Source: Candidatus Omnitrophota bacterium
GTDB taxonomy: Bacteria > Omnitrophota > Gorgyraeia > DTHP01
Length of the DNA: 39,372 nucleotides
Direction of reading: 5' to 3'
Assembly (NCBI GenBank): GCA_023819145.1
Contig: JAMWCW010000013.1
Coordinates: forward strand, 1-39,372
Shown here: positions 6,653-22,236 of the stretch, piece after piece
How positions within the stretch are numbered: the stretch's first letter is position 1
Layout of the letters: the number at the start of each line of letters is the position of its first letter
Notes under the pieces: generated by a model
Databases searched by the model: none
What the model was told of the DNA's origin: nothing
What the model saw: the letters and a program-made list of their open reading frames with translations, nothing else
Made by a program: the position numbers and the translations under genes

Positions 6653-6682
6653 TTGACAATTTCTCTCCCCTTAGACTATAAT
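6653..6682 (+). promoter_or_regulatory. Near-consensus sigma-70 promoter of the glycan operon
   Basis: TTGACA at 6653-6658 and TATAAT at 6677-6682 are separated by 18 bases, so both hexamers are perfect consensus. A transcript would start near 6689, about 19 bases before the ATG at 6708. It lies in the only real gap between the dcw cluster and the glycan genes and probably drives the long + strand operon that follows. Confidence 0.85.
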
Positions 6683-6707
6683 TAATTAGTTATCAACATT
6701 GTCTTTT

Positions 6708-7859
6708 ATGTCCTTCAGAAGAATTAAGATTTTGCATATCATTACCCATTTAGAATTGGGAGGAGCACAAAGGACTACGCTTGCCCTTATTCAAGGGATT
6801 AATCGGAAGAATTTTGAGATACATTTTATAACTTCTCCTTATGGATATTTAGTTAAAGAACTAAAGAAGATAAGCGGGATTAAGGTTAAATTAATTCCCC
6901 ATTTAAGAAGGGAAATAAACTTAGTAGATGACCTTATTGCTTTTTTAAGATTGTTCAACTATATAAGAAAGAATCATTTTGACATAGTTCATACTCATTC
7001 TCCCAAAGCAGGATTTCTGGGACGCTGGTCAGCGAAATTGGCGGGAGTTCCTTTTATTGTGCATACTGTTCATGGTTTTCCTTTTTATGAAAAAGAAAAT
7101 TTTTTCCTCAAAAGGCTTTACATTCTTGCTGAGAGATTTACAGCGGAAATAACCGATAGACTTATTGTAGTCTGTGAGAGCGATAGGGAAAAAGGAATCT
7201 CTGCCGGCATAGGTTATTATGAAAAATATGTTTTGATTAGAGAGGGGATAGAAGTGGATAGAGGTGGGATTTTTTCTTCCGATATTTTGTACAATAGGTT
7301 AAGAGAGGTTTCTCCGATAATGGGAATGGTTGCTTGTTTAAAAAAGCAAAAAGCTCCTTTTGATTTTGTAAAAATGGCATCTTTGGTCAAGAAAAGATTT
7401 CCTGAAGCAAAATTTGTTCTGGTGGGAGGGGGACCATTGTACAAGAAGGTAGAGAGATTGATCAGGAGGTTAGGTTTAGAAAACAATTTTTTTCTCTTGG
7501 GTTGGAGAGAAGATGTTCTGAAAATAATCTCTTTTTTAGATATAGTTGTGCTTACCAGTTTATGGGAGGGACTACCTCTGGTAATCCTGGAAGCAATGGC
7601 TTTAAAAAAACCAATCGTGGCCACTAGGGTAGATGGTATAAAAGAATTAATTAGGGATGGAGAAAATGGTTTTTTAGTGGAACCCGGTGATTACTGTGGG
7701 CTTGCTCAGAGAGTAATCTTTCTTTTGGAAAATAAAAAATTACAGATAAGTTTTGTAGAGAGAAATCAAGAAATTTTGTCCAAATACAACCTTTCTTCAA
7801 TGATTAAATTGACAGAAGAACTTTATTATAAACTTATGGGGGTGAGTTATGTCCATTAA
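6708..7859 (+). CDS. Family 4 (GT-B) glycosyltransferase
   Basis: This is a retaining GT-B glycosyltransferase expected to extend a lipid-linked glycan at the cytoplasmic membrane face. The N-domain has HIITHLELGGAQRTTLAL and the HTHSPKAGFLGRWSAKLAG acceptor-side loop. The C-domain carries the EX7E-type donor motif EGLPLVILEAMALKKPIVAT followed by DGIKELIRDGENGFLV, typical of GT4. I start it at ATG 6708 (MSFRRIKIL) rather than the in-frame TTG at 6699, because the predicted transcript start would leave almost no leader for the TTG. No clear Shine-Dalgarno is seen. It overlaps the next gene by 11 bases. Substrate is unknown. Confidence 0.88.
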   Translation: MSFRRIKILHIITHLELGGAQRTTLALIQGINRKNFEIHFITSPYGYLVKELKKISGIKVKLIPHLRREINLVDDLIAFLRLFNYIRKNHFDIVHTHSPKAGFLGRWSAKLAGVPFIVHTVHGFPFYEKENFFLKRLYILAERFTAEITDRLIVVCESDREKGISAGIGYYEKYVLIREGIEVDRGGIFSSDILYNRLREVSPIMGMVACLKKQKAPFDFVKMASLVKKRFPEAKFVLVGGGPLYKKVERLIRRLGLENNFFLLGWREDVLKIISFLDIVVLTSLWEGLPLVILEAMALKKPIVATRVDGIKELIRDGENGFLVEPGDYCGLAQRVIFLLENKKLQISFVERNQEILSKYNLSSMIKLTEELYYKLMGVSYVH

Positions 7860-8835
7860 TGTTTTTTTGAGTATTTTTTTATCGGGATTAGTTTTTATCT
7901 TTATCCTCAGGAAATTTTTTCTCCTAATTAAACCGAAAGGATTTTTTGTTGAGAAGGACAAAAGAGGGGTTGTAAAAGTTGGGGGTATAATTTTATGCTT
8001 CTCTTTCTTGTTTGCAGGATTATTTTTCTATCATGATGCTTTCTTTAAGGATTCGCTTAATCTGAAGATTATTCTTACCACTTTTCTTGTTTTTATCCTC
8101 GGTTTAATTGATGATGGAAAGGAATTAAAAATCTGGCAGAAGTTCTTAGGAGAATTAATTATTACTTTCTTTTTTATCCTCATCTCCGGTATGACCACGG
8201 AGATTATTTTTTTTCCTAAAAGTATAAATTTTATCATTACTCTGGTTTGGATATTAGGTATCACTAATGCTTTTAATCTTCTTGATATTCAAGATGGTTT
8301 AGCTGCGGGAGTGGGTTTTTTGATAAGCTTAGCCTTTTTATACTTGGCACATTTTACTGGCAATATCTTTGTAGAGCAAATTTCTTTAATTTTAGCCGGT
8401 GCATTATCAGCTATCCTTATTTTTAATCTTCCCCCGGCAAAAATATATCTTGGAGATTCGGGGAGCCTTTGTTTAGGCTATGTCCTTAGTATTCTGGCGA
8501 TTTCTCTAAGTTATGCTCAGGCTGCGCATGAAATGGCACTGCTCTCTCCTATTTTTATCCTGGGCTTTCCTATCTTTGATACAATTTTTGTAAGTTTAAG
8601 GAGGTTATCCCAGGGAAGGTCTATCTTTAAAAAATCCGATGACCATTTCATTTTCTGCTTGATTAAACAGGGGAGAAAAAAGAGTGCTTTATTTATCTGT
8701 TACTTATTAAGTTTGCTATTTATCAGTTTAGGAATCCTGTTTATGAAGTTAAGTAACCTTTTCAGTCTGGTCCTTATTATTTTATTTCTGAAATTATTAT
8801 ACCACATTTCTTTTAAGGTAAGCAGGGTTCAATGA
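7849..8835 (+). CDS. WecA/TagO/MraY-family polyprenyl-phosphate sugar-1-phosphate transferase
   Basis: This is a polytopic membrane enzyme that starts glycan synthesis by moving a HexNAc-1-phosphate from a UDP-sugar to undecaprenyl phosphate. Family motifs in order are FILGLIDDGKEL (acidic pair), NAFNLLDIQDGLAAG, KIYLGDSGSLCLGYVL, and a C-terminal DDHFIFCLIKQG at the place of the usual HxHH-type loop. That last motif is degenerate compared with WecA. About ten hydrophobic segments span the 328 residues. GTGAG precedes the ATG at good spacing. Murein-specific MraY is unlikely because this gene lies outside the dcw cluster among glycosyltransferases. It is the probable first committed step of the exported glycan. 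Confidence 0.88.
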   Translation: MSINVFLSIFLSGLVFIFILRKFFLLIKPKGFFVEKDKRGVVKVGGIILCFSFLFAGLFFYHDAFFKDSLNLKIILTTFLVFILGLIDDGKELKIWQKFLGELIITFFFILISGMTTEIIFFPKSINFIITLVWILGITNAFNLLDIQDGLAAGVGFLISLAFLYLAHFTGNIFVEQISLILAGALSAILIFNLPPAKIYLGDSGSLCLGYVLSILAISLSYAQAAHEMALLSPIFILGFPIFDTIFVSLRRLSQGRSIFKKSDDHFIFCLIKQGRKKSALFICYLLSLLFISLGILFMKLSNLFSLVLIILFLKLLYHISFKVSRVQ

Positions 8836-10109
8836 AAAATATTTTTATTTTGGGAGCAGGTTTATCGGGACTGAGTTTAGCCTATCATTTACAGAAAAAA
8901 AAGATAGATTGTCAGATTTTTGAAAAAGAGAATGAAATCGGTGGGTTGGCACGGTCTAAAAGGATTTCGGGATTTTGTTTTGACTACGCCGGTCATCTTT
9001 TACATTTCCGCGATAAAAAATTGTTTTCTTTTGTGAAAGGATTGCTTGGGGATAATCTAATCAGACATAAACGGAATGCTTCCATATATTCTTTTCGTAA
9101 GTTTGTTCCCTACCCATTCCAGGCTAATCTCTTTGCTCTCCCCCAGAAAATTAAAGAGGATTGTCTTAAGGGCTTTATAGATACAGGAGAGCATAAAATT
9201 AATAACAATTTTCAAGATTGGGTAATAGAAAAATTTGGTAAAGGGATTGCCAGGTATTTTATGCTTCCCTATAATCACAAATTTTGGACAATTCCCTTGA
9301 AAGAATTGACTTATCTCTGGGTAGATAGATTGATCCCAGTTCCTTCTTTTAGGGAAATAATTGAGGGAGCAAAAGGAAAACTCGATAAAAATTTTGGTTA
9401 TAATGTTTTCTTCTGGTATCCCAGGAATGGGATTTGTGAACTTCCTTTAGCTTTGAGTAAGGAGGTAAAGAATATTTTTACTGATTGTAAAATAAAGGAA
9501 ATCGATCTGAAAAATAAAAAAATTAAATTGGCTAATAATACCTGGGAGAGGTTTACTTATTTATTTTCCACCATTCCCTTACCAGAGTTAATGGACCTTA
9601 TAAAAAATATACCTAAGGAGATGGTTTATTCTTACAAAAAATTACGCTGGAATTCCATATTCAATCTAAACCTCGGCATAGATGGGGAGATCAAACTCCC
9701 TTACCACTGGATATATTTTCCTGAGAAAAAAATATCTTTTTATCGGATAGGTTTTTTTCATAATCTTTCCTCCGAATTGGTTCCTCAAAGAAAAAGTTCT
9801 CTCTACATAGAAATTTCTTATTCAGAATCTAAACCTATCAACAAGAAAGAAATTGTCTTCCGGGCGATAAAAGATTTGATCAGGATAGGTATTCTTAAGA
9901 AAGAAGACCAAATTTTAGTTAAGGACATCAACGATATAGAGTATGGCTATCCCATTTATGATTTTGACTATCCGCAAGCAAGAGAAAATACTTTAAATTA
10001 TTTAAAAGAAAATAATCTTATCTCCTTTGGTCGTTACGGCTCCTGGCGCTATATGTCTATGGAGGATGTTCTTGCAGAAGGTAAAATTTTGGCGATGAGT
10101 TTGAAATGA
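8832..10109 (+). CDS. FAD-dependent amine-oxidase/UDP-galactopyranose-mutase-like protein
   Basis: The N-terminus has a Rossmann FAD-binding motif, FILGAGLSGLSLAYHL, with the acidic end of strand 2 (FEKENEIGGLARS). This is followed by FDYAGHLLHF, as in protoporphyrinogen-oxidase-like and UGM-like proteins of polysaccharide loci. The C-terminus, with GRYGSWRYMSMEDVLAEGK, resembles the closing FAD-contacting segment of that superfamily. The 425 residues are full length. It overlaps both neighbours by four bases. A role in sugar-nucleotide or glycan rearrangement or oxidation is inferred from context only; UGM identity is not established. Confidence 0.78.
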   Translation: MKNIFILGAGLSGLSLAYHLQKKKIDCQIFEKENEIGGLARSKRISGFCFDYAGHLLHFRDKKLFSFVKGLLGDNLIRHKRNASIYSFRKFVPYPFQANLFALPQKIKEDCLKGFIDTGEHKINNNFQDWVIEKFGKGIARYFMLPYNHKFWTIPLKELTYLWVDRLIPVPSFREIIEGAKGKLDKNFGYNVFFWYPRNGICELPLALSKEVKNIFTDCKIKEIDLKNKKIKLANNTWERFTYLFSTIPLPELMDLIKNIPKEMVYSYKKLRWNSIFNLNLGIDGEIKLPYHWIYFPEKKISFYRIGFFHNLSSELVPQRKSSLYIEISYSESKPINKKEIVFRAIKDLIRIGILKKEDQILVKDINDIEYGYPIYDFDYPQARENTLNYLKENNLISFGRYGSWRYMSMEDVLAEGKILAMSLK

Positions 10110-11380
10110 GAATAGAAAGGCATATAAGGAAAAGAGTCCATTTTAAAAGGAGAAGAGATTTTTATAAATATAAAATTGGTGATTTTTTTTACGGCTTGAG
10201 ATACTATTGGCAGGAATATTTAGTAAGTGCGGGCATATTAAAAAACTCTGTTTTTACCGGCCCCACCCTTGTCCAGATAGACCTTACCAATAAATGTAAT
10301 AGTAAATGTCTTGTTTGTTGGCAACGTTCTCCATATTTAGGAGAGTTGAGGGCGACCGGAGAGTGGGAAAACCAAGAAATTTCTTTTACAAGGATAATTA
10401 GTTTATTAAGGGAATTAAAGAAAATGGGAACAAAAAAAATATTTTTTTCCGGTGGAGGGGAACCCCTCATGTATCCTAGATTCTGGAAAGTAATTTCCTA
10501 TGCTAAAAAAATGGGTTTCGTTTGTATACTCAGTTCAAATTTTACACTTGTAGATAGAGAAAAAGCAAAGATATTTATTGATCTAAACTTTGACCATATA
10601 AATGTAAGTTTATGGGCAGCAACTCCTGAGACTTATATGCGCGTGCATCTGGGGAGAGATAAGGAGTGTTTTTACAGAACTAAAGATATATTGCGTTTTA
10701 TTTATGAGCATAAAAAGATTAAACACCTTCCCCATATGAATATTTATAATGTAATTTTTAAAGAAAATTTTTATGAAGTAGACAAGATGGTAGAACTTGC
10801 TTTTGAGGTGGGAGCAGATTCTATTCAGTTTGTCCCTATGGATCCGGTTGTTGGTAAAACTGATTTTTTGTTATTGAATTATAGAGAAAGGGAGATTGTA
10901 AAGGAGAAACTAAAAATGATTAAGCAGAAATTACTTGACGACAATCCCGAGAATAAAAGAGGTCCCAATCTGTTTATCTGTGATTATGAAGATTTTTTAC
11001 GCCGTCTTTCTAATGAGAAAGCAGATAAGGGAGAATACGATTCCTTAGTTAAAGATATCCCCTGTTATATTGGCTGGGATTTTATGCGTATAACTGCTAA
11101 TGGCGATGTTTATCCCTGTTTAAAAGTAAATGTTCCTGTAGGAAATATTTATGAGGAAGATTTGCTTAAAATTTGGTATGGTGAGAAACAGAGGATATTT
11201 AGAAAACTTGCGAAAGAGAAAAAAGAAAATACATATTTTTCTCCTCAGAGGTGCTCTTTAAGCTGTGACAATCTTGCTCAGAATATAATTTTACAGAAAC
11301 AGATTGTTTCTCTTTCCAAGTTAGATAAAATGTTTATGTATTTTTTAAACTATTATGTTTTTTCTGAAAAGATTTACTAA
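10106..11380 (+). CDS. Radical SAM/SPASM protein (paralogue 1 of 3)
   Basis: The radical SAM [4Fe-4S] motif CX3CX2C is at Cys64, Cys68 and Cys71 within LTNKCNSKCLVCWQRSP. It is followed by a SAM-binding glycine motif, SGGGEPLMYP. A C-terminal SPASM-like region with CYIGWDFMRITANGDVYPC and a terminal CSLSCDN cluster should bind auxiliary iron-sulfur centres. It shares the segments SLWA...TY...H and IYNVIF with the genes at 12751 and 18963. About 50 extra basic residues precede the radical SAM core. SPASM enzymes act on peptides, sugars and alcohols; here a sugar or glycan substrate is inferred from the neighbours. It starts inside the stop of the preceding gene. Confidence 0.88.
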   Translation: MRIERHIRKRVHFKRRRDFYKYKIGDFFYGLRYYWQEYLVSAGILKNSVFTGPTLVQIDLTNKCNSKCLVCWQRSPYLGELRATGEWENQEISFTRIISLLRELKKMGTKKIFFSGGGEPLMYPRFWKVISYAKKMGFVCILSSNFTLVDREKAKIFIDLNFDHINVSLWAATPETYMRVHLGRDKECFYRTKDILRFIYEHKKIKHLPHMNIYNVIFKENFYEVDKMVELAFEVGADSIQFVPMDPVVGKTDFLLLNYREREIVKEKLKMIKQKLLDDNPENKRGPNLFICDYEDFLRRLSNEKADKGEYDSLVKDIPCYIGWDFMRITANGDVYPCLKVNVPVGNIYEEDLLKIWYGEKQRIFRKLAKEKKENTYFSPQRCSLSCDNLAQNIILQKQIVSLSKLDKMFMYFLNYYVFSEKIY

Positions 11381-12770
11381 ATCACCAGAGATTGTCTTAG
11401 TTATATCTCCTCCCTGGGACACAATGATGCCTCCATTAGGAATTGCTTATTTAGAAAGCTATCTTAAGGAAAAAGGTTTTCATTCTATAATTCTGGATAT
11501 AAATATTGACCTTTATAATAGCGTAACAAAAAAAGAGAGAATTCTTTGGCGTCCAGAAATGTATCCACACTGGTTTGAAGAAGAGAAGTTTTTGCAATTG
11601 AAGAATTCTTGGGAAATTTATTTTGAAAGATATACTAAAAAAATACTTTTCTTTAAAACTTCCTTTATTGGCTTTTCTGTAAATACCAGTAATCGCCTTT
11701 TCTCCTTAGAATTGGCTAAGCGGATAAAATTAGAGGATAAAAGAAAGACGATAATCTTTGGAGGACCGGCTACTTTTGGCCTTCATTTAGATACTTTCTT
11801 CTTGCGAAAAAAGGACGATCTTCCGGTAGATATTTTTGTAATTGGGGAAGGGGAGGAGACATTATATGAGATTTTATTAACGCAGGACATAGCCAAAGTA
11901 AAAGGAGCAATTTTTAAAAAAAATGGAGGGTATTCTCTGCTTATTCCCCGTTTTCCAATCATGGATATTAATACCATTCCTTTTCCCACTTTTGAAAGTT
12001 TCCCTTTAAATAAATATCTTATTCCTGCTTTACCTTTACTTATTAGTCGGGGATGCGTTTCCAGATGTTCCTTCTGTAACGACCATCGTTTAAGTTTCCC
12101 CTATCGTTATAAAAATCCCCCTTATGTTATTAAAGAAATAGAGTATCATATGAAATACAATGGGATTAATTCTTTTTCTTTTAAAGACCTTCTCTGCAAT
12201 GGGAATATTCCGGTTTTAGAGACCCTTTGTAATTTAATTATTGAAAAAAAACTGAACATAAACTGGGATTCTCAAGCAATTCCCCGTAAAGAAATGGGTT
12301 TTCATCTCTTAGAAAAGATGAAGCGTGCTGGTTGTCATACTCTAATTTATGGTTTAGAAAGTGCCTCCAATAGAGTTTTAAATAAAATGAAAAAGATGTT
12401 CACTAAAGAAATCGCTGAAAGAGTAATCCGAGATACGCACAGAGCAGGCATAAGAGTTTATATAAATATCATTGTTGGTTTTCCTGGGGAAACTGAAGAA
12501 GATTTTATGGAGACATATAATTTTATAAAAGAAAATAGAAAATATATAGATTCCTTAGCTGCTTTGAGTGTCTGTTTGGTTAATGGAGAGACAGACTTAG
12601 AATTTAATCCTTCAAAATATGGGTTACTGCTTCCTGATGAACCAGAGAAGAGAGCACGCTTTTGGAAAGACATTTACGGTAACGATTATCACTTAAGAAA
12701 AGAGAGAGCGGAAAGAATACTTTCTCTTCTAAGAGAATTAAATCTTTCCTATGATTCCCTTAATGTCTAA
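11355..12770 (+). CDS. B12-binding-type radical SAM protein
   Basis: The N-terminal ~190 residues have the cobalamin-binding-domain layout seen in this superfamily: SPPWDTMMPPLGIAYLESYL, then GGPATFG and VIGEGEETL. I do not see the DxHxxG base-off histidine motif. The radical SAM core has CX3CX2C at Cys234, Cys238 and Cys241 (SRGCVSRCSFCN) and the downstream YGLESASNRVLNKM and IVGFPGETEEDF motifs. Such enzymes catalyse C-methylations, ring contractions and other difficult C-C or C-S chemistry. It overlaps the SPASM genes on both sides (26 and 20 bases), indicating one operon. Substrate is unknown. Confidence 0.87.
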   Translation: MFFLKRFTKSPEIVLVISPPWDTMMPPLGIAYLESYLKEKGFHSIILDINIDLYNSVTKKERILWRPEMYPHWFEEEKFLQLKNSWEIYFERYTKKILFFKTSFIGFSVNTSNRLFSLELAKRIKLEDKRKTIIFGGPATFGLHLDTFFLRKKDDLPVDIFVIGEGEETLYEILLTQDIAKVKGAIFKKNGGYSLLIPRFPIMDINTIPFPTFESFPLNKYLIPALPLLISRGCVSRCSFCNDHRLSFPYRYKNPPYVIKEIEYHMKYNGINSFSFKDLLCNGNIPVLETLCNLIIEKKLNINWDSQAIPRKEMGFHLLEKMKRAGCHTLIYGLESASNRVLNKMKKMFTKEIAERVIRDTHRAGIRVYINIIVGFPGETEEDFMETYNFIKENRKYIDSLAALSVCLVNGETDLEFNPSKYGLLLPDEPEKRARFWKDIYGNDYHLRKERAERILSLLRELNLSYDSLNV

Positions 12771-13962
12771 AAAAGAGAGAGTAAAATTATTAGCAGGGAT
12801 TTTTCATGGAAGAAAGGCTTTTCTTGGTCCACAGGTAATACATCTGGATTTAACCAATTTGTGTAATAATAATTGTATTGGTTGTTGGTGTCGTTCTCCA
12901 TTATTAAAAGATAAAGAGATGCCTGATTGGGAAAAAGGGTTATCCCTTCCTTTTGAAATTGTTAAAGGAGTAATTGATGATTGTTTAAAAATGGGAGGAT
13001 TGATACAGGTAAAACTTGTGGGTGGGGGAGAACCTTTTATGCATCCGGATATTTTAAAAATTATAAGATATATTAAAGGGAGAAAAAAAGAAATTGAGAT
13101 TGATATAAATACTAACTTTACCCTCGTAGATAAAAAGATTGCCCAAGAGTTAATAGATTTAGAAGTAGATTCGCTTACTGTAAGTCTCTGGGCGGGGGAT
13201 AGCAAAACTTATGCCATAACCCATCCCAATAAGGATGAAGATACTTTTTATCGTATTGAAGGGGTTTTAAAATATTTGGCGGAGAAAAAGAATAGTAAGC
13301 CCTATATAAAAATTTATAATGTTATTTTTAATCTCAATTATCAAAAAATTGAAGAGATGCTTCAGTTTGCCTTAGCAGTAAAAGCCGAAGACATTCAGTT
13401 TGTTCCCTTGGACCCCATCCCTGGGAGAACAGATTGTCTTCTGCTCAATAAAAAGGAAAAAGAAGAGTTATGGGAGAAATTATCTTTGCTTGAAAAATAT
13501 TACGACCCTCTAAATCAACGATACAATTACAATGGCAAAAGCATTATCGTTACCGATTTCCTTGGGTTTTTGAGAAGGTTAAAAGAAACTTCGGAATTCG
13601 GTGCTTACGATATTAAGTGTGTTGATAAATTTCCCTGTTATGTGGGGTGGTTATTTTCCCGGATAATGGCTACGGGAAATGTTGTTCCCTGCTGTAAAGG
13701 GCATCGCTTGGTTTTAGGAAATATTTATAAAAAAAGTTTCTACAAAATCTGGAATTCAGAACTCTACGAGCAATTCAGATACAAGGCTAAAAATTTGTCC
13801 AAAAAAGATACCTTTTTTTCTCAAATAGGGAATCAGGCAAATCCCGAGACCGGTTGTTACAATTGCGATAATCTCTGGCAGAATGAGCCAATGCATAGAC
13901 AAATTGAATCCTTAAATGGAAGAAAGAGAATATTAATTAAAGCCTTCTCATGGTTTTATTAA
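12751..13962 (+). CDS. Radical SAM/SPASM protein (paralogue 2 of 3)
   Basis: CX3CX2C is at Cys38, Cys42 and Cys45 (LTNLCNNNCIGCWCRSP), with the triple-Gly SAM motif VGGGEPFMHP. The C-terminal SPASM-like region has CYVGWLFSRIMATGNVVPCC and GCYNCDN. It shares SLWAGDSKTY...HP and IYNVIFNLNY with the 10106 and 18963 genes, so the three are clear paralogues. The N-terminus is shorter, with only ~28 residues before the core. The ATG at 12763 is an alternative start that reduces the overlap with the upstream gene. It overlaps the wzm gene by 13 bases, linking it to glycan export. Confidence 0.88.
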   Translation: MIPLMSKKERVKLLAGIFHGRKAFLGPQVIHLDLTNLCNNNCIGCWCRSPLLKDKEMPDWEKGLSLPFEIVKGVIDDCLKMGGLIQVKLVGGGEPFMHPDILKIIRYIKGRKKEIEIDINTNFTLVDKKIAQELIDLEVDSLTVSLWAGDSKTYAITHPNKDEDTFYRIEGVLKYLAEKKNSKPYIKIYNVIFNLNYQKIEEMLQFALAVKAEDIQFVPLDPIPGRTDCLLLNKKEKEELWEKLSLLEKYYDPLNQRYNYNGKSIIVTDFLGFLRRLKETSEFGAYDIKCVDKFPCYVGWLFSRIMATGNVVPCCKGHRLVLGNIYKKSFYKIWNSELYEQFRYKAKNLSKKDTFFSQIGNQANPETGCYNCDNLWQNEPMHRQIESLNGRKRILIKAFSWFY

Positions 13963-14732
13963 AGAGGATTAAGATTGTTTTTTTTAATCGGGAAATGCTT
14001 AAAAATTTAATCAAAAAAAATTTAAGGTCCTATTATGTAAATTCTTTATTGGGGATAAGCTGGGCAATTATTATCCCTTTAATTTTGATGTTTGTTCTAA
14101 GTTTTATTTTTCAAAATATTCTAAAAATTGAGATTGAGAATTTCCCTCTCTATGTTCTTTCAGGACTTATTCCATTTATGTTTTTTGCTTCTTCTTTAAC
14201 TCAGGCAGCCAATTCTTTGGTGGAGAATATTTATCTTTTAAGACAATTTAATTTACCCAAAGAGATAATCCCCCTTTCTATCATTATCACCAATTTTTTA
14301 AATTTTTTACTGGGCTTTTTGGTGCTTATTCCGATCTTTGTTCTTTCTAATCCTCGCATTCTTCTTTCACTATCTTTTTTATTCTTTATCATTCCCATAT
14401 TTTCAATTTTTGTAATGGGCATAAGTTTATTTTTTTCTGCGCTCAATGTTTTCTTTCGCGATTTATCTCATCTCTTAGGTGTTCTGATTATGTTTTTCTT
14501 TTGGATTACACCCATCTTTTATAAGGAAGAGATGATTCCTACTCAATATCGCTGGATTATTGATTTCAACCCTTTAAGCATTTATATAAATTTATTCAGG
14601 AATATATTGTTAAATGGTAGAGTTAGGGAGTTTAAGTTTATTTCTTTTAGTCTGTTATGGGCAGGGTTATTTTTTTTCATCGGCTATTATTTTTTTCTAA
14701 GAACGGAGTCAAATTTTCTTAAAAGGATTTAA
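13950..14732 (+). CDS. wzm: Wzm-type ABC-2 polysaccharide export permease
   Basis: This 260-residue integral membrane protein has the ABC-2 permease layout. An amphipathic N-terminal stretch ends in the conserved RSYYVNSLLGISWAIIIPLI, followed by about six membrane helices. The late segment FFWITPIFYKEEMI...RWIIDFNPLS is typical of O-antigen and teichoic acid exporters (Wzm/TagG). It forms the membrane channel for a lipid-linked glycan with the ATPase encoded immediately downstream, with no intergenic base between them. It overlaps the SPASM gene upstream. Confidence 0.9.
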   Translation: MVLLKRIKIVFFNREMLKNLIKKNLRSYYVNSLLGISWAIIIPLILMFVLSFIFQNILKIEIENFPLYVLSGLIPFMFFASSLTQAANSLVENIYLLRQFNLPKEIIPLSIIITNFLNFLLGFLVLIPIFVLSNPRILLSLSFLFFIIPIFSIFVMGISLFFSALNVFFRDLSHLLGVLIMFFFWITPIFYKEEMIPTQYRWIIDFNPLSIYINLFRNILLNGRVREFKFISFSLLWAGLFFFIGYYFFLRTESNFLKRI

Positions 14733-16760
14733 ATGAAAATTATAGAGTTAAAAGATGTCTGGGAAAGATATAGGATTAAATTTATTGAAAATGGTAAAGT
14801 TTTCTGGGAGGATTTCTGGGCTTTAAAAGGGATTAATCTGGAGATAGAAAAAGGAGAGACTATTGCCATTGTGGGAGAAAATGGAGCCGGCAAAACTACC
14901 CTTTTGAAGGTAATTGCCGGATTACTTGTTCCTGATAGAGGGGAAGTGAAAGTTGAAGGAAAAGTATCCAGTCTTTTTGAGCCAGGATTAGGGTTTCATC
15001 CTGAACTTACGGGAAAAGAGAATATCTATTTAACTGCGAGCTTATTTGGTCTAAAAAAGGAGGAAATAGATAGTTTGTTTGAACAAATTTGTGATTTTGC
15101 CGATATCGGTAAATTTATTAATTCCCCTTTAAAATATTATTCCCAGGGAATGTTTGTGAGGCTTTCCTTTTCCATTGCCGTGCATCTTTTCCCGGATATC
15201 TTTTTGATTGATGAGATTCTTACCGTAGGAGATATAGGATTTCAAAAAAAATGTATCCATAAATTGTTCGAATTAAAAGATAAAGGGCTTACTTTAATTT
15301 TAGTTACTCAGGATTTATCTCTGGCGCAAAAGATAGCAAAAAGAGGAATTTTTTTAAAGGAGGGAAAGATTATTAAAGATGATTCTATAGAGAAAGTAAC
15401 TTCTTCCTATATAGAGAGTATTAAAAAAGAAGAAACTTCTAATAAAAGAGAAACGAAGAAAGAAATTATCAGTGTTGACCGACTGAAGTTATTAGCTGAA
15501 GAAGGCAGTATAAAGATATTCTGGGAAGGGAAAGAAATAACCAAAGGTAAAGGACTTTATACAGCAATAAATTCACTTAATAAATGGTATCACTCTTTTG
15601 ATTTTCCCATAAAGATAGAAAAATTGAATGAAAAAAATCTTGCAATAATTGTTTACTATCCTCATTTATCCTTAAAAGAATATATTAAGCTCAATATTCT
15701 GACAGAGAAAGAAATATCTTTGGAAATAGAGATGGAATTAGAGAAAGAAATTCTTTTTTCAAATCGCGATGTTCGCCTGGAGGTTATCTCCATTTATCAA
15801 ACCTGGTTAACGGATGAAGAAGAGGGGTTTTTTTCAGAAAAATTTTTTAATGGAATAAGTCCGGTAAGATTAAAGAATAACCGCGTAAAAGCATTGGGAT
15901 TAAAAGAAAAAGATGGGCTTCCGCATTTTATTTTCTCCATTAATAATACAGGGAATTGGCTTTCTTCTCTTTACAAGAGAAAAGAAGAAGATGAAAAAAT
16001 AGTTCTTCAGTTTTCTGAAATAATTCCTAAGAAAAATCAAAAATTCTTTCCAGGAAGATATACTTTTTTTAAAGGAAAGATAATTTTTGACAGAGAATTG
16101 GCGAGAAAAGAAATAATTTCTTGTGTTTATCCTATAATTAAAAAGGAAGATTTGGAATTTGTTTTTGCAGAAGGAAGGGGAAGGATATTTTGGAAAGATA
16201 TGGAAATTACATCTGGTTTAGGGATGTATACATCTTTTCGGGTTAAAGGAATCTGGTATGATTCAAGTTTAGCCATATGGGAAATTAGAGAAAATACTTC
16301 CCGAGAAATAGAGGTTTTGGGAAGCTGGCCTTATATTTCTCTTTCTCAATTCTGGAAAATTTCTCTCTCAGATGTTGGAAAGATTCTCTGGAGAGTAGAA
16401 ACAGAGATAGCCGAGAAAACAGATTTGGAGTTGGAACACATAGGTCTTATGTTTATTCCTGAATACAAAAATTGGATAGCCCAAAATATCTATAAAGGTG
16501 ATTTTAGTGAGGAATTTTCTGAGGATTACGATATCCTTCCTTTTCGTTTTTTCTATGGTCGGGCAGATGAGCTGAAATCTTCTGTTCCAGGTCTTCCTTC
16601 TCTGATATTCAGAGTTTTAAATAAAGATAATTCTTTGCGAGCGATGATTGGAAATAGTGATTACTTATATAAAGCAAGACTCTTTCAATATCAGAGAAAT
16701 TTAGCAGGAGAAATATTAAAATTAAAAGAACATTTCTTAGGGGAGGTGGAGCTAAAATAA
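14733..16760 (+). CDS. wzt: Wzt-type ABC exporter ATPase with a long duplicated C-terminal region
   Basis: Residues 1-~230 form the ATPase that powers glycan export with Wzm. They show Walker A GENGAGKTT (about 48-56), the signature YSQGM (about 136-140) and Walker B IFLIDE (Asp160/Glu161) with the VGD motif usual in Wzt. The H-loop position reads LVTQDLS, so the switch histidine is Gln193. Residues ~251-455 and ~471-656 are two copies of an unrecognised domain opening with IFWEGKEIT and IFWKDMEIT. This domain recurs in the next protein. Wzt C-terminal domains commonly bind the glycan end; that role is inferred here. At 675 residues it is longer than most Wzt. Confidence 0.9.
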   Translation: MKIIELKDVWERYRIKFIENGKVFWEDFWALKGINLEIEKGETIAIVGENGAGKTTLLKVIAGLLVPDRGEVKVEGKVSSLFEPGLGFHPELTGKENIYLTASLFGLKKEEIDSLFEQICDFADIGKFINSPLKYYSQGMFVRLSFSIAVHLFPDIFLIDEILTVGDIGFQKKCIHKLFELKDKGLTLILVTQDLSLAQKIAKRGIFLKEGKIIKDDSIEKVTSSYIESIKKEETSNKRETKKEIISVDRLKLLAEEGSIKIFWEGKEITKGKGLYTAINSLNKWYHSFDFPIKIEKLNEKNLAIIVYYPHLSLKEYIKLNILTEKEISLEIEMELEKEILFSNRDVRLEVISIYQTWLTDEEEGFFSEKFFNGISPVRLKNNRVKALGLKEKDGLPHFIFSINNTGNWLSSLYKRKEEDEKIVLQFSEIIPKKNQKFFPGRYTFFKGKIIFDRELARKEIISCVYPIIKKEDLEFVFAEGRGRIFWKDMEITSGLGMYTSFRVKGIWYDSSLAIWEIRENTSREIEVLGSWPYISLSQFWKISLSDVGKILWRVETEIAEKTDLELEHIGLMFIPEYKNWIAQNIYKGDFSEEFSEDYDILPFRFFYGRADELKSSVPGLPSLIFRVLNKDNSLRAMIGNSDYLYKARLFQYQRNLAGEILKLKEHFLGEVELK

Positions 16761-18997
16761 TGATGTGGATAAAATCAAACTACCAGAAATTTAGAAAACA
16801 CTTTAAAGATAAGGGATTTTTTTATGCTCTCTGGAGGGGAATAAAATATTTTGTTTATCTTATAAAAAAATATAAAGGGGAGAAAAAACTGCACTTTAAA
16901 AAGAAGACCCTTAAGAAAGGAGGTACGGAGGTAGTTTGTTTTGATAAAAACATAAAGATTTTTTGGAAAGAAAAAGAAATTACTAAAGATGTGGGATTAA
17001 ATACATCTTTAATCATAAAAGGTAATTGTTTTACTTCTCCAAAGGCAAAATGGAAGGTAAAAATTATAGATACCGATATCCTTTCAATTTTAGTTATTTG
17101 GAAGAAAATTCCTATTAGACAGGATTGGTTAATAAAATTGGTCTCTCCCGATAAAATCGTATGGTTAGTAGATATAGAAATAAAGAAAGATATTTCTTTT
17201 GAAGAAAGAAAGGCCAGCATTATGGTTTCTTCTTTATATAAGCGCTGGATTAATTCCTATGAAGAAGGTTTTTTCCCAGTCATTAGAAACTGGGAAGAAA
17301 TTCCCCTGCAGTTAAAAGAAAGTAAATTTATTGGGGTTAGGACTTTTGAAAACGACTTACTCAATATTATCTTTGATTATGCAAAAAATTATTTTAAAAC
17401 TTCTCCTTCTCTACAGAATACTGGCAAAGAAAATAATGCCCGGGTTTTAAATGCCTGTATGGGTAAAGAGGATTACAAGAAAGGGAAATATCCATATTTT
17501 AGAGGAGAAATTTTATTAATTAAGGATGAGCAGATTTTGGAAAATTATATTGAAAAGGCAAGGGGAGAGTTCACAAAAAAAATTTTCTTAAATAAAAAAG
17601 ATGATTTTAAAGTTGTCTTAGTAAATCTTCCTTGGCAGAGAGATGGTAAATGGGGAGTGCGTGCCGGTTCACGCTGGCCACATATAAAAACTGAAGAAGA
17701 GAATAACTATCAACCTTTTCCTTTCTTTTTGGCTTACTCTGCCAGTCTCCTCAAAAATAATGGTTTTGAAGTTTATCTCATTGATTGTCTTGCAGAAAAG
17801 ATAGATTTTATAAAACTCAAGCAGAAAATCAAAGAGATAAAACCTCAGCTTTTGTTAGCCGAAACTTCTACCCCATCTCTGTATAACGATTTAGAGATTT
17901 TGGAACAGCTCTCTGGAAATTTTCCTATTGCCCTTTCCGGACCGGAGGCAAATATAAGAAAAAAAGAATTTCTGGAGAGGAATCCTTTTATTGATTTTGT
18001 TTTGGTAGGTGAATATGAAGTAACCCTTTTAGAGTTAGTAAAGAGCATAAAAGAGAATCTCTCTTTTCAAAATATCCTTGGTTTAATTTATAGAAGTGAC
18101 GGAGAGGTAAAGATAAATCCTCCGCGTCCACTGATTAAAGACTTAGACTCTCTACCCTGGCCATTAAGGGAAGGTTTACCCATGGAGAGTTATATTGATG
18201 CTCCCGGAGAGATGCCTTTACCCTCAGTGCAGATGTGGTCAAGCAGAGGCTGTATTTTTAAGTGTCTGTTCTGTCTCTGGCCATCGCTGATGTACCAAGG
18301 AAATATTTTTCGCACAAGAAATCCTTTAAAAGTTGTAGAGGAGATGGAATATTTAGTTAAAGAGATGGGATTTAGGTCTATTTATTTTGATGACGATACC
18401 TTTAATATTGGTAAAGAAAGAGTTTTAGAGATTTGTAGGCAAATAAGAAAATATAAACTCAACATTCCTTGGGCAATAATGGCAAGGCCGGATTTAATGG
18501 ATAAAGAGATGCTTTCTGCTTTGAAGGAAGCCGGTGTATGGGCAATAAAGTATGGTGTAGAATCAGGAGAGCAAAAATTATTAGACAAGATTGGTAAGAA
18601 TATGAATCTCCAAAAAGCGATAGAGATGATTCGTTTGACTAAAAAATTGGGGATAAAATTTCATCTTACCTTTATGTTTGGTCTGCCTGGAGAAACTATG
18701 GGCTCAATCAAAGAAACAATTGAGCTTGCAATAGACCTTGCTCCTTTTTCTCTCCAGTTTTCCTTAGTTACCCCTTTCCCGGGGACAAGTCTTTTTGAAT
18801 ACTGTAAAGATTCAGAGGAAATTGCTTCCTATGATTGGGAAGCGTATGATGGGAATTACAATTGTGTGATAAATACAGAAGCCTTAACCTCTAAGGAGAT
18901 AGAGAATTTTAAAAATCTTGCTTTGCAAATCTGGAGAGATTATCAAAAAGGGATTTTAAGCTATGCAGAGGCCTGTAAAATCCTACCAAAGACTTAG
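16760..18997 (+). CDS. B12-type radical SAM protein with N-terminal Wzt-tail-like domain
   Basis: Residues ~56-265 match the repeated domain of the Wzt tail: IKIFWKEKEIT at 65-75, then YKRWI...EEGFF at 160-172. Residues ~283-430 form a B12-binding-type domain without a visible DxHxxG. The radical SAM core follows with CX3CX2C at Cys498, Cys502 and Cys505 (SSRGCIFKCLFC), then YFDDDTFN, KYGVESGEQKLLDKIGK and FGLPGET. The shared domain suggests that it acts on, or docks to, the glycan handled by the exporter; this is inference. The ATG overlaps the last base of wzt. At 745 residues it is longer than the other B12-type proteins here by that extra domain. Confidence 0.88.
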   Translation: MMWIKSNYQKFRKHFKDKGFFYALWRGIKYFVYLIKKYKGEKKLHFKKKTLKKGGTEVVCFDKNIKIFWKEKEITKDVGLNTSLIIKGNCFTSPKAKWKVKIIDTDILSILVIWKKIPIRQDWLIKLVSPDKIVWLVDIEIKKDISFEERKASIMVSSLYKRWINSYEEGFFPVIRNWEEIPLQLKESKFIGVRTFENDLLNIIFDYAKNYFKTSPSLQNTGKENNARVLNACMGKEDYKKGKYPYFRGEILLIKDEQILENYIEKARGEFTKKIFLNKKDDFKVVLVNLPWQRDGKWGVRAGSRWPHIKTEEENNYQPFPFFLAYSASLLKNNGFEVYLIDCLAEKIDFIKLKQKIKEIKPQLLLAETSTPSLYNDLEILEQLSGNFPIALSGPEANIRKKEFLERNPFIDFVLVGEYEVTLLELVKSIKENLSFQNILGLIYRSDGEVKINPPRPLIKDLDSLPWPLREGLPMESYIDAPGEMPLPSVQMWSSRGCIFKCLFCLWPSLMYQGNIFRTRNPLKVVEEMEYLVKEMGFRSIYFDDDTFNIGKERVLEICRQIRKYKLNIPWAIMARPDLMDKEMLSALKEAGVWAIKYGVESGEQKLLDKIGKNMNLQKAIEMIRLTKKLGIKFHLTFMFGLPGETMGSIKETIELAIDLAPFSLQFSLVTPFPGTSLFEYCKDSEEIASYDWEAYDGNYNCVINTEALTSKEIENFKNLALQIWRDYQKGILSYAEACKILPKT

Positions 18998-20204
18998 AGA
19001 AATTTTTATGGATAACACATTTCCCGAGGCGATATCTAAAATTTTTAGCTATTTTAGACCTTCGGTAATCAAAGACAAATATTTTTACCTTAAAGGGATA
19101 AAGAGTAAACAGTTTGCCTTCTCTGGTCCGTTATCGGTTCAAATAGATTTAACTGATGAGTGTAATAGCCATTGTCTTGCCTGCTGGTGCAATTCTCCTT
19201 TACTGGGAGAAAACAATAAAAATAAGGATTCCCTTGCCTTTCCTTTAGTAATTAATCTTCTTGAAGAATTGGAATACTTAAGGACAAGAGAAATTGTTCT
19301 CTCTGGTGGAGGGGAGCCTTTTTTACATCCGCATATTCTTGAGATAATAAAAAGAATTAAGCAAAAAAAATTTATCTGTCACATCAATACAAATTTTACT
19401 TTATTAAATAAAAAAATCATAGATGAACTTATCAAATTGAGATTGGATTATCTTACCATTAGTCTCTGGGCAGGTTCAGTTAAGACCTATAGAATGGTTC
19501 ATCCTCATAGAACTGATGAAGATTTTTGTAGAATAAAAGAAAATTTAATTCTTCTAAATTCTTTAAAAAGAAAATTACCCAAAGTGAAGGTTTACAATGT
19601 GATTTTTAATTTAAATTACTTTGAAATGGAAGAGATGCTTGAATTTGCAGAAGATGTAAGGGCAGATTATATTGAATATACGATTTTAGATGTAATTCCT
19701 GATAAAACCGCTGTTTTATTGCCCAATAGGGAAGAATTTAATAGAATAAAAGAGATTTCTCAGAGAATTCTACAGAGAAAAAATAAAATAAAAATCTTAA
19801 ATTTTGAACATTTTTTAAGAAGAATTTCTCAAGAGGAAGCGATAAAAGGAGAATATGAAAAAAATTTTATTGAGAACATTCCCTGTTACAGTGGCTGGTT
19901 ATTTTCGCGAATTTTAGCCAATGGTGAGGTTACCCCCTGTCTTAAGGCGCATCGTTTTCCTGTAGGGAATTTGTATAAAAATAGTTTTAGGGAAATCTGG
20001 AATGGAGAGTTAATGCAGGAATTTAGAAGAAAAACTATTGATGGAAATAAAAACGATGGTCTTTTTTATCTTATAGGAAATGGAGACGGAAAGGAGATAG
20101 GTTGTTTGCGTATCTGTGATGATTTGATGCGCAATTTCTATTTTTATAATAAAATTAACTCTTTAACTTATTTAGAGGGGATAATCTATAGGCTAATTCC
20201 ATGA
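18963..20204 (+). CDS. Radical SAM/SPASM protein (paralogue 3 of 3)
   Basis: CX3CX2C is at Cys67, Cys71 and Cys74 (LTDECNSHCLACWCNSP), with the triple-Gly motif LSGGGEPFLHP. The SPASM-like region has CYSGWLFSRILANGEVTPC and a terminal CLRICDD. It shares SLWAGSVKTY...HP and VYNVIFNLNY with the 10106 and 12751 genes. The start given overlaps the upstream gene by 35 bases; ATG 19008 (MDNTFPEA) would leave a 10-base gap and is equally plausible. Its stop overlaps the start of the small membrane ORF at 20201. Function is probably modification of the exported glycan or its precursor (inference). Confidence 0.87.
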   Translation: MQRPVKSYQRLREIFMDNTFPEAISKIFSYFRPSVIKDKYFYLKGIKSKQFAFSGPLSVQIDLTDECNSHCLACWCNSPLLGENNKNKDSLAFPLVINLLEELEYLRTREIVLSGGGEPFLHPHILEIIKRIKQKKFICHINTNFTLLNKKIIDELIKLRLDYLTISLWAGSVKTYRMVHPHRTDEDFCRIKENLILLNSLKRKLPKVKVYNVIFNLNYFEMEEMLEFAEDVRADYIEYTILDVIPDKTAVLLPNREEFNRIKEISQRILQRKNKIKILNFEHFLRRISQEEAIKGEYEKNFIENIPCYSGWLFSRILANGEVTPCLKAHRFPVGNLYKNSFREIWNGELMQEFRRKTIDGNKNDGLFYLIGNGDGKEIGCLRICDDLMRNFYFYNKINSLTYLEGIIYRLIP

Positions 20205-20317
20205 GATTATATCGGGGTATTGTTATATTTTGCTTATTTTTAATGGGTATTTTTGTAGAGATTTATCTTTTATTTCTTAAAAAATTGCGGGGCTGGATAA
20301 TTTTCCCGGGAAGATGA
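20201..20317 (+). CDS. 38-residue single-pass membrane peptide
   Basis: This short open frame fills the 110-base space between the SPASM gene and the next glycosyltransferase. Its ATG overlaps the upstream TGA (ATGA) and its own TGA overlaps the downstream ATG (ATGA), so both junctions have the coupled-translation geometry used throughout this operon. The peptide starts with two basic residues and has one hydrophobic span (about residues 7-26), then KKLRG and an aromatic tail, FPGR. No family is recognised. The double overlap argues for a real gene, but no clear Shine-Dalgarno is visible, so a spacer that happens to be open cannot be excluded. Confidence 0.55.
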   Translation: MRLYRGIVIFCLFLMGIFVEIYLLFLKKLRGWIIFPGR

Positions 20318-21492
20318 GAATTTTAATGCTTCATCCCCATGACATATTTTCTCCTTTAGAGCCTTGGACGATAAGGATTGTTAGTTTTGCTAAGGAGTTT
20401 ACTAAGTTAGGCTATAAAGTAAAATTGGTTTATTTTCCTCTTGAGTTTAGTACTCAGACTAAACCCCAATATCTCAATCCCTCTTTAGAAGTAATCCCTT
20501 TGAGAAGAGAATTAGGTTTGATTAATTTTATTAAAAACATAATTATCGTAAATAAATTGGCAAAATGGGCAGAGATAATCCATTTTCAAAAATGTTTTTA
20601 TTGGGCGTCTATTCCTGCTTTGCTTGCTTCTTTTTTGAATAATAAACCTATCCATTACGACTGGGATGACTGGGAGACAGAAATATTTTATGAATGTCCT
20701 GATTCTCACTTTTTAAGGAATCTTGTAGGAAGATTTATGCGCCTTACAGAAAATTTAATTCCTCACTTGGTAGATACAATTTCTGTATCCAGTCAAGCCC
20801 TTTACGATTTATGTGTTAAATTGTGTATTCCTGAAGAAAAAATTTATATTGTTTCTGTGGGTGCAGATTTGGAGAAGTTTAATCCTAATGTTTCAGGAGA
20901 GGAGATTAAAAAAAGATTTAATCTCAGAGGAAAGGTTGTCCTTTATCTTGGTCAACTCCACAGTGGGCAATATGCGGAGCAATTTATTTATACAGCAAAT
21001 GAAATTTTAAAGGAAAAAAAAGATGAAGAAATTAATTTTCTTATTGTCGGAGGAGGGTTTAAACTAAATCATTTAAAGGAGCTTACAAAAAAACTTAATC
21101 TGGATAGCAGAGTTATCTTTACTGGACCCGTTACCCATAATGAGGTTCCTAAGTTTATTGCAGCCAGTGATATTTGCATAGCCTGTTTTGAAGATAACAG
21201 AATTACACGCTGTAAGAGCCCTTTAAAGATTACAGAATACCTTGCCTCGGGTAAGGCAATTGTTGCTTCGGATGTGGGCGAGGTGAGAAAAATGTTAAAT
21301 GGGGCAGGGATTTTGATTAAGCCTGAGGATATCCGGGCTTTAAAAAGAGGAATTAATGTGCTCTTAAAGGATAGATATTTAAAAGAGGATTTAGAAAAAA
21401 AATCCCGAGAAAGAGCAGAAAGATATACCTGGCGTATCTCGGCAGAAAAAATTCTTAATGCTTATTTAAAAAACCTTTCTAATAAAAGTTAA
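20314..21492 (+). CDS. GT4-type glycosyltransferase
   Basis: This is a GT-B fold glycosyltransferase. The N-terminus MRILMLHPHDIFSP carries the nucleotide-sugar enzyme start typical of GT4. The middle has the HYDWDDWE motif, which resembles DLDDWE in the gene at 26107. The C-domain has VVLYLGQLHSGQ, a second Rossmann sheet, and a donor-site segment SPLKITEYLASGKAIVASDVGEV with the conserved Glu. The 392 residues are full length. It starts within the small ORF at 20201 and is followed four bases later by a GT2 gene. Sugar specificity cannot be read from sequence. Confidence 0.85.
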   Translation: MRILMLHPHDIFSPLEPWTIRIVSFAKEFTKLGYKVKLVYFPLEFSTQTKPQYLNPSLEVIPLRRELGLINFIKNIIIVNKLAKWAEIIHFQKCFYWASIPALLASFLNNKPIHYDWDDWETEIFYECPDSHFLRNLVGRFMRLTENLIPHLVDTISVSSQALYDLCVKLCIPEEKIYIVSVGADLEKFNPNVSGEEIKKRFNLRGKVVLYLGQLHSGQYAEQFIYTANEILKEKKDEEINFLIVGGGFKLNHLKELTKKLNLDSRVIFTGPVTHNEVPKFIAASDICIACFEDNRITRCKSPLKITEYLASGKAIVASDVGEVRKMLNGAGILIKPEDIRALKRGINVLLKDRYLKEDLEKKSRERAERYTWRISAEKILNAYLKNLSNKS

Positions 21493-21495
21493 TTT

Positions 21496-22236
21496 ATGGC
21501 TAAAAATTTGACACTTATTTTTCCAGTAAGGAATGAGAAAGAGAATCTAAAGATTTTACTTCCCCGAGTAGAAAAATTATTGGATTCACGGACAGAAATA
21601 ATTATCGTAGACGATGGTTCAAACGATGGCTTAGAAGAAATTAAAGACATTTTTTCGTTTTTAAATCTTAAAATTGTTAAAAATAGAAAAAGAGGATTAG
21701 CCTCAGCCATTGATACGGGAATTAAAAATGCAACTACTGAAATTATTTGCTGGATGGATGCAGATTTATCTATGCCTGTAGAACTTATCCCCGAAATGGT
21801 TAAATTTATTTCTGAATACGCTATAGTGGTTGGTTCGCGTTATATATGTTCAGGAAAAGATAAGAGAAATAATAGAATACGCGTTTTAACTTCAAAATTA
21901 TTTAATTTAATGAGTAAAAAAATATTGAATACAGAAACTTGTGACCTCACTTCGGGGTTTATAGCTATAAGAAAAGAGGTATTGAAAGAATTAAAAATAG
22001 AAGGCAAACTTGGAGAATATTTTTTAAATCTAATTTTTCAAGCAGAAAAAAAGGGATTTAGAATTAAAGAGATTCCCTATATATTTCAAGAGAGAAGAAA
22101 AGGGAAAAGTAAAATCGCCCCCACTCCTTTTGTATTTTTAAGAAACTCTCTGTTTTACCTCAGGATGTTACTCCGGCTTAAATTTTGTAATTTATTTTCC
22201 GGTAAAGATAATAAAGTCTTGGATAAGGAGACTTAA
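21496..22236 (+). CDS. DPM1-like GT2, polyprenyl-phosphate glycosyltransferase
   Basis: This is a GT-A fold, inverting GT2. It has the N-terminal FPVRNEKENLKILLPR, the IIVDDGSNDG nucleotide motif, WMDADLSMP (metal-binding DxD) and GSRY, and TCDLTSGFIAIRKEV as in dolichol- or undecaprenyl-phosphate mannosyl/glucosyl transferases. At 246 residues it matches soluble or peripheral DPM1 forms without the C-terminal membrane pair. It probably makes a polyprenyl-phosphate sugar that the GT39-like enzyme on the opposite strand could use as donor. Its 3' end overlaps that convergent gene by 59 bases. Confidence 0.83.
   Translation: MAKNLTLIFPVRNEKENLKILLPRVEKLLDSRTEIIIVDDGSNDGLEEIKDIFSFLNLKIVKNRKRGLASAIDTGIKNATTEIICWMDADLSMPVELIPEMVKFISEYAIVVGSRYICSGKDKRNNRIRVLTSKLFNLMSKKILNTETCDLTSGFIAIRKEVLKELKIEGKLGEYFLNLIFQAEKKGFRIKEIPYIFQERRKGKSKIAPTPFVFLRNSLFYLRMLLRLKFCNLFSGKDNKVLDKET

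What the first reader, a model, noticed from the sequence alone, without database searches (positions are those of the whole stretch)
15483..17554. An unrecognised ~190-residue domain shared by the exporter ATPase (two copies) and the adjacent radical SAM enzyme (one copy)
Seen: Wzt residues ~251-455 and ~471-656 and residues ~56-265 of the 16760 protein align along their length. All open with IFW-x-(E/D/K)-(K/M)-EIT followed by G(L/M)xT(S/A) (Wzt 262-278 and 485-501, radical SAM 67-83). They share a Y/W-x-W segment and an EEGFF-like turn (Wzt 355-367 and 578-591, radical SAM 160-172), then an (L)P/N-x-IF strand and an aromatic/basic close. Known: Wzt C-terminal domains recognise the exported glycan. 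Inference: this is a glycan-recognition or docking module that delivers the radical SAM enzyme to the same substrate the exporter reads, which would couple modification to export.
Basis: partly seen in the sequence, partly recalled or inferred. Interest (0 to 1): 0.85.

Follow-up and report, generated by a model that had tools for sequence, protein, structure and literature searches.

The report
Shared sugar-type domain on exporter and enzymes
In Omnitrophota bacteria the motor of a sugar-polymer exporter and the radical enzymes encoded beside it carry copies of one previously unnamed domain, sometimes in a single protein chain, which suggests that unusual radical chemistry on a surface sugar polymer is physically tied to its export.

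Summary
Wzt carries two copies (residues about 244-460 and 467-675) and the B12-type radical SAM protein one (about 49-261); pairwise E is 6e-16 to 3e-17. AlphaFold2 gives all three the same strand order. The best PDB matches are galactose-mutarotase-like beta-supersandwiches of glycosidases and lyases. No Pfam, NCBIfam or PDB sequence family covers the domain, here called DOM. It is not the described Wzt carbohydrate-binding domain (Wzt_C), but it sits where Wzt_C sits in Wzts of comparable clusters that lack DOM. DOM occurs in 74 of 384 genomes of the phylum, in a conserved cluster: Wzm, Wzt with 1-5 DOM, B12-radical SAM with DOM fused or as a separate gene, and SPASM radical SAM enzymes (some with 1-4 DOM). 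Copies group by position in the array more than by genome. In two genomes exporter ATPase, DOMs and radical SAM enzymes form one open frame (1,902 and 1,856 aa). Most likely DOM is a glycan-recognition module that lets exporter and radical enzymes engage the same lipid-linked glycan, coupling modification to export. Binding, the glycan and the chemistry are not shown. New variant of a known kind: the carbohydrate-binding checkpoint of ABC glycan exporters.

The parts
15462..16112 (+). DOM copy A, Wzt residues 244-460
   Evidence: profile boundaries; AF2 all-beta, pLDDT about 90
16131..16757 (+). DOM copy B, Wzt residues 467-675
   Evidence: profile boundaries; AF2 same strand order as copy A
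16904..17542 (+). DOM copy C, radical SAM residues 49-261
   Evidence: profile boundaries; AF2 same strand order
14733..16760 (+). Wzt: ABC exporter ATPase (PF00005, Walker A AIVGENGAGKTT) with two DOM; no Wzt_C match
16760..18997 (+). B12-binding-type radical SAM protein with N-terminal DOM; shares its first base with the last base of Wzt
16763..16876 (+). Two N-terminal helices of the radical SAM protein (residues 2-18 and 20-39), probable membrane-surface anchor (inference)
   Evidence: AF2 secondary structure
17729..18037 (+). B12-binding domain PF02310 of the radical SAM protein (residues 324-426)
   Evidence: 34.4 bits against cut-off 32.1
18242..18730 (+). Radical SAM domain PF04055 (residues 495-657); CIFKCLFC cluster motif at residues 498-505
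13950..14732 (+). Wzm: ABC-2 permease partner (PF01061)
12751..13962 (+). SPASM radical SAM enzyme without DOM
18963..20204 (+). SPASM radical SAM enzyme without DOM
10106..12770 (+). SPASM radical SAM (10106-11380) and B12-type radical SAM (11355-12770), both without DOM
6699..10109 (+). Glycosyltransferase (6699-7859), PF00953 polyprenyl-phosphate sugar transferase type protein (7849-8835) and FAD amine-oxidoreductase-like protein (8832-10109), likely same pathway
20314..22236 (+). Two glycosyltransferases (group 1 and family 2) downstream

Best explanation
The shared segment is a beta-supersandwich domain (DOM) that most likely recognises a glycan. On Wzt it takes the place of the classical Wzt_C carbohydrate-binding domain, so that the exporter can recognise its lipid-linked polysaccharide. 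On the B12-type and SPASM radical SAM enzymes of the same cluster it holds the same glycan so that its sugar residues can be modified by radical chemistry. Because exporter and enzymes carry related readers, and in some genomes share one chain, modification is coupled to or checked against export. Shown here: homology, shared predicted fold, absence from the sequence libraries searched, replacement of Wzt_C, conserved gene order, fusions. Inferred: glycan binding, identity of the glycan, the chemical step, the order of events.
For: Homology of the three copies and same predicted fold. Foldseek: supersandwich domains of carbohydrate-active enzymes for both models. Same place as Wzt_C: 4 of 5 Wzts without DOM beside a related radical SAM gene carry Wzt_C, no DOM-bearing Wzt that was scanned does. 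Conserved order Wzm - Wzt-DOM - [DOM] - B12-radical SAM - SPASM in many Omnitrophota and single loci of other phyla. Single frames ATPase-DOM-DOM-B12rSAM-DOM-SPASM (L048, 1,902 aa) and ATPase-DOM x5-SPASM (L165, 1,856 aa). DOM also on PMT_2 glycosyltransferases. Radical SAM closest to enzymes acting on sugars: AprD4 by fold, HpnJ by family score (HpnJ role from PMC12583986). Conserved Trp/Tyr, no conserved acid/His pair. Known paradigm: a carbohydrate-binding domain on Wzt reads a chemical modification of the chain end (PMC9445017; PMC11231755).
Against: No ligand or binding data. The fold class also contains domains that do not bind sugar (YidC and viral capsid chains are among the matches). 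12 of 34 loci with DOM on Wzt show none on or beside the best-matching radical SAM. The association has only 2 independent contrasts on the tree, so it is not statistically established. Conserved aromatics may be core residues. Both fusions come from draft metagenome contigs.
Confidence: 0.6

Rival explanations
1. DOM is a protein-protein docking or oligomerisation module: copies on exporter and enzymes bind each other and hold the radical SAM enzymes at the exporter without touching glycan.
For: Same domain on both partners, arrays of several copies, natural fusions.
Against: It replaces Wzt_C, whose characterised members bind glycan (PMC9445017). The best fold matches are carbohydrate-active enzymes. 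In 12 of 34 loci Wzt has DOM while neither the best-matching radical SAM nor a nearby stand-alone gene does. Loci in CSSED10-310 and one deltaproteobacterium have DOM on Wzt only.
Confidence: 0.22
2. The B12-radical SAM protein is the chain terminator: it caps the growing end of the glycan and the Wzt DOM reads that cap, as WbdD and Wzt do in E. coli O9a. A special case of the best explanation.
For: Gene directly beside Wzt, including in clusters where Wzt has Wzt_C (gaps 45-77 bp in L147, L154, L163). Caps are chemical modifications in known systems (PMC9445017).
Against: The clusters hold several radical SAM genes, sometimes eight or more SPASM paralogues, more than a single cap needs. Position classes differ between Wzt and enzyme copies.
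Confidence: 0.25
3. DOM is itself an enzyme, for example an epimerase or lyase, as other mutarotase-like domains are.
For: Fold class.
Against: No acid or His column reaches 60% among 196 copies (best Glu24 57%, Asp43 53%); several copies per chain.
Confidence: 0.05
4. The similarity is a recent local duplication in this genome without functional meaning.
For: The three copies lie in adjacent genes.
Against: Copies are only about 25-33% identical and the same arrangement recurs in many genomes with position-specific conservation.
Confidence: 0.01

Closest known systems
Wzt C-terminal carbohydrate-binding domain (Pfam Wzt_C, PF14524) of ABC O-antigen exporters
   Same: Follows the Wzt ATPase domain; same place in comparable clusters; presumed reader of the exported glycan
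   Different: No sequence match; different predicted fold class; occurs in 1-5 copies; also found on radical SAM enzymes and PMT_2 glycosyltransferases
Galactose-mutarotase-like beta-supersandwich domains (GH97, GH38, LacZ, PL17, YidC)
   Same: Best Foldseek matches for both models
   Different: No sequence-family match; about 215 residues; no conserved acid/His pair; attached to an ABC ATPase and radical SAM enzymes
WbdD-type chain terminators paired with Wzt carbohydrate-binding domains
   Same: Modifying enzyme paired with an exporter that carries a recognition domain
   Different: Radical SAM instead of kinase/methyltransferase; recognition domain shared between enzyme and exporter. PMC11231755 reports one CBM-like Ig fold in a Klebsiella O7 terminator and none in other terminators known then
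HpnJ and AprD4 radical SAM enzymes
   Same: Same core with a B12-binding-type domain; HpnJ is the best family score (244 bits), AprD4 the best fold match (TM 0.83 on target length); both act on sugar-like substrates
   Different: Below the curated cut-offs of both families; carries DOM and an N-terminal helix pair; lies in a polysaccharide export cluster

Membership tests
Wzt_C (PF14524) carbohydrate-binding domain | Sequence match to the Pfam model | tested here: not met
   0 of 46 copies match at E<=1; positive control: 4 of 5 Wzts without DOM match at E 7e-18 to 2e-25
Wzt_C (PF14524) carbohydrate-binding domain | Fold like solved Wzt carbohydrate-binding domains | tested here: not met
   None in the best 50 Foldseek matches; supersandwich enzymes instead. 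Lower ranks were not shown.
Wzt_C (PF14524) carbohydrate-binding domain | Position C-terminal to a Wzt ATPase encoded next to Wzm | tested here: met
Wzt_C (PF14524) carbohydrate-binding domain | Binds the exported glycan | not testable with these tools
   needs a binding assay
Galactose-mutarotase-like beta-supersandwich | Fold | tested here: met
   Foldseek E down to 6e-9, probability 1.00, on a confident model; same kind of matches for the radical SAM model
Galactose-mutarotase-like beta-supersandwich | Catalytic acid/His residues of the enzymatic members | tested here: not met
   no acid or His column above 57% in 196 copies
Cobalamin-dependent radical SAM enzymes | CxxxCxxC motif, radical SAM domain and B12-binding domain above cut-off | tested here: met
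HpnJ (TIGR03471) | Score above the curated cut-off | tested here: not met
   244 bits against 577.6
AprD4 family (NF033070) | Score above the curated cut-off | tested here: not met
   110.6 bits against 500
Glycan chain terminator of ABC export systems | Installs a terminal cap required for export | not testable with these tools
   needs glycan analysis of a deletion or in vitro assay; no substrate known

The most novel reading that the evidence does not exclude
A membrane-bound radical-SAM production line built into a polysaccharide exporter: an ordered array of position-specific supersandwich glycan readers shared by the export ATPase, B12- and SPASM-type radical SAM enzymes and a glycosyltransferase, in some genomes as one chain, carries out radical rearrangement of sugar residues on a lipid-linked polymer and licenses only the finished polymer for export.
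Probability: 0.35. Interest if true: 0.87.

Novelty: new variant of a known kind. Interest (0 to 1): 0.68.

Why it matters
Radical SAM genes sit in surface-polysaccharide clusters of uncultured bacteria, and what they act on is unknown. A recognition domain shared with the exporter, and natural fusions of the two, point to the lipid-linked glycan as the substrate and make this testable with isolated domains. It would also be a second, unrelated solution to the carbohydrate-binding checkpoint of ABC glycan exporters, using one domain family on both exporter and modifying enzymes; PMC11231755 knew of a CBM-like domain in only one terminator enzyme.

Tried and rejected
Chance similarity: rejected by shuffles. 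Ordinary Wzt_C: rejected. Local duplication in one genome: rejected. Catalytic mutarotase: unlikely. Statistical proof of co-occurrence on Wzt and radical SAM: attempted on a tree of radical SAM cores, but only 2 independent contrasts exist, so it cannot be decided. Searching all genomes with the domain itself failed because no stretch is conserved enough; the named-genome survey was therefore anchored on the radical SAM core and is biased to those clusters. Centring genome searches on other phyla was not possible, so the spread outside Omnitrophota is known only from single loci. Side of the membrane for DOM on PMT_2 glycosyltransferases: a hydropathy count was inconclusive. Literature: no paper naming Omnitrophota, radical SAM and polysaccharide together, none on a mutarotase-like domain on an ABC exporter; the 2019 survey of CBMs linked to ABC exporters (Glycobiology, cwz066) is not held.
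Full report
OBSERVATION. The ORFs are Wzt (14733-16760, 675 aa) and a B12-type radical SAM protein (16760-18997, 745 aa). The quoted motifs are present at the quoted residues. BLASTP between the copies gives E 3e-16 (A-B), 6e-16 (A-C) and 3e-17 (B-C), and Smith-Waterman scores are 20.7 to 24.6 SD above 2,000 shuffles. Profile boundaries: Wzt 244-460 and 467-675, radical SAM 49-261.

SECOND CLUSTER IN THE SAME BIN. Contig 7 of the same genome bin carries the same gene series with the same domain copies, 73-76% identical in protein and 78.6% identical in DNA over 11.4 kb. An FtsA-like gene lies on the same side of both clusters but is only 58.6% identical. This is either a duplication or a second population in the bin (estimated contamination 4.85%); not resolved.

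THE FAMILY. Pfam finds only the ATPase, B12-binding and radical SAM parts. Of 46 copies none matches any Pfam family in a consistent way, and no PDB sequence matches significantly. The NCBIfam matches listed for the two proteins are ATPase or radical SAM families. Of 59 genomes (its own and relatives up to class level) 9 have the domain, of the phylum sample 74 of 384.

STRUCTURE. AlphaFold2 on Wzt 244-675 with 28 relatives: mean pLDDT 90.6, pTM 0.85; both halves are all-beta with closely matching strand order. On the full radical SAM protein with 23 relatives: mean pLDDT 88.9, pTM 0.67; residues 49-254 have the same strand order, preceded by helices at 2-18 and 20-39. Foldseek against the PDB gives for the Wzt pair 1,2-beta-oligoglucan phosphorylase (5h42, E=6e-9), GH38 mannosidases, FpGalNase, GH97/SusB, LacZ, PL17 lyases, rhamnogalacturonan lyase and YidC; no Wzt carbohydrate-binding domain is in the best 50. 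For the radical SAM protein the core matches AprD4 (6fd2; TM 0.83 on target length), TsrM, OxsB, CysS and TokK, and FpGalNase, GH97 and YidC also appear; since that last group also matches the Wzt model, the three copies very probably share one fold. That these matches belong to the galactose-mutarotase-like fold class is my own knowledge of those proteins.

ARCHITECTURES. A scan of GTDB genomes anchored on the radical SAM core gave 80 loci. With those from related genomes the domain appears as: ATPase-DOM(1-5); DOM-B12rSAM; B12rSAM-DOM; B12rSAM-DOM-SPASM-DOM; DOM(1-4)-SPASM; stand-alone genes between Wzt and the radical SAM gene (L051, L089, L106, L112); and C-terminal to PMT_2 glycosyltransferases (L049, L146). 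Counts overlap slightly because some contigs were fetched twice. Two frames join exporter and enzyme: L048 (G011), ATPase-DOM-DOM-B12rSAM-DOM-SPASM, 1,902 aa, its ATPase, B12, radical SAM and SPASM parts confirmed by Pfam on one chain; and L165 (G255), ATPase-DOM x5-SPASM, 1,856 aa, whose copies are closest to Wzt-first, Wzt-middle, Wzt-middle, SPASM first and SPASM third copies. In L048 the first copy groups with Wzt-first copies and the other two with radical SAM copies.

REPLACEMENT OF Wzt_C. Five loci have a Wzt without DOM beside a related radical SAM gene. Four of these Wzts carry Wzt_C (L142, L147, L154, L163); the fifth (L128) has neither. The DOM-bearing chains scanned (window Wzt, L138, L048) and the 46 copies show no Wzt_C. 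DOM on or beside the best-matching radical SAM was seen in 22 of 34 loci with DOM on Wzt and in 0 of 5 without. On the radical SAM tree there are only 2 independent contrasts, so this is suggestive, not significant.

POSITION CLASSES. In a tree of 196 non-redundant copies the classes (Wzt-first, -middle, -last, B12 N-terminal, B12 C-terminal, SPASM and others) need 45 changes against 137 in shuffles. Arrays are therefore old and mostly position-specific rather than fresh duplications. Stand-alone copies L106 and L112 fall inside the fused B12 N-terminal group, so fission or fusion happened more than once. Deep branches are weakly supported (FastTree, short domain).

MECHANISM. Known: in E. coli O9a, Klebsiella and Aquifex systems a carbohydrate-binding domain on Wzt recognises the chemically modified end of the lipid-linked glycan and licenses export (PMC9445017; PMC11231755). 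Here Wzt has a different domain at that place, and the neighbouring radical enzymes bear the same domain. Proposed: the glycan is started by the PF00953 transferase at 7849-8835, extended by the nearby glycosyltransferases, held by the DOM of the radical SAM enzymes at the membrane surface, modified, recognised by the Wzt DOM array and exported through Wzm. Everything about the substrate and the reaction is inferred. The best family score of the enzyme is HpnJ, which is needed to turn BHT glucosamine into the cyclitol ether (PMC12583986) and is listed as a non-methylating cobalamin-dependent enzyme (PMC13142503); the closest structure, AprD4, was solved with its substrate paromamine. A sugar ring rearrangement or deoxygenation is thus as plausible as a methylation; curated cut-offs of both families are not reached.

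CONSERVED RESIDUES. Among 196 copies (model numbering): Thr26 86%, Gly30 89%, Trp49 86%, Trp74 89%, Tyr111 89%, Trp114 86%, Phe123 90%, Pro155 90%, Phe203 87%; polar Gln72 70%, Asn174 73%, Arg182 72%; best acids Glu24 57% and Asp43 53%. This fits binding better than catalysis, but some of the aromatics may simply be core residues.

VERDICT. Glycan binding is unproven. It is a new variant of a known kind: ABC glycan export guided by a recognition domain, with a new domain and a new enzyme class.

Noticed in passing
L006 (G000 contig 7, 1-12000) against window 6600-19100: A second version of the whole cluster lies in the same genome bin, 78.6% identical in DNA over 11.4 kb, with an FtsA-like gene (58.6% identical) on the same side; duplication or second population.
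   Followed up: partly
L086 1251-4268, also L095 and L173: Some Wzts have a long charged, coiled-coil-like stretch between the ATPase and the DOM copies, recalling the molecular ruler of chain terminators but here on the exporter itself.
   Followed up: no
L086 4265-4561, L094 6304-6603, L095 9702-10001, L098, L099, L104: A small membrane protein of about 96-104 aa (MRTAQ...) lies between Wzt and the radical SAM gene exactly in the group whose radical SAM protein lacks DOM; a possible alternative link.
   Followed up: partly
L100 12195-20110 and L153 12249-20856: Long runs of up to about nine SPASM radical SAM paralogues in a row, of unknown purpose.
   Followed up: no
L049 5015-8938 and L146 2645-4915: PMT_2-type membrane glycosyltransferases with C-terminal DOM copies; the side of the membrane is unresolved.
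   Followed up: partly
L127 (Aminicenantes) 9881-11368: A radical SAM protein without DOM falls inside the DOM-bearing Omnitrophota group of the radical SAM tree, which suggests gene transfer.
   Followed up: no
L142 and L128 (archaea); L147, L154, L163 (bacteria): The same radical SAM subfamily lies near or directly beside Wzt in archaea and other bacteria with Wzt_C (L128 with neither domain), so the pairing of this enzyme with the exporter is wider than DOM.
   Followed up: partly
window 27213-29012 and 33627-34979: A sulfatase-family protein (PF00884) and a second ORF with a similar N-terminus lie downstream of the cluster.
   Followed up: no
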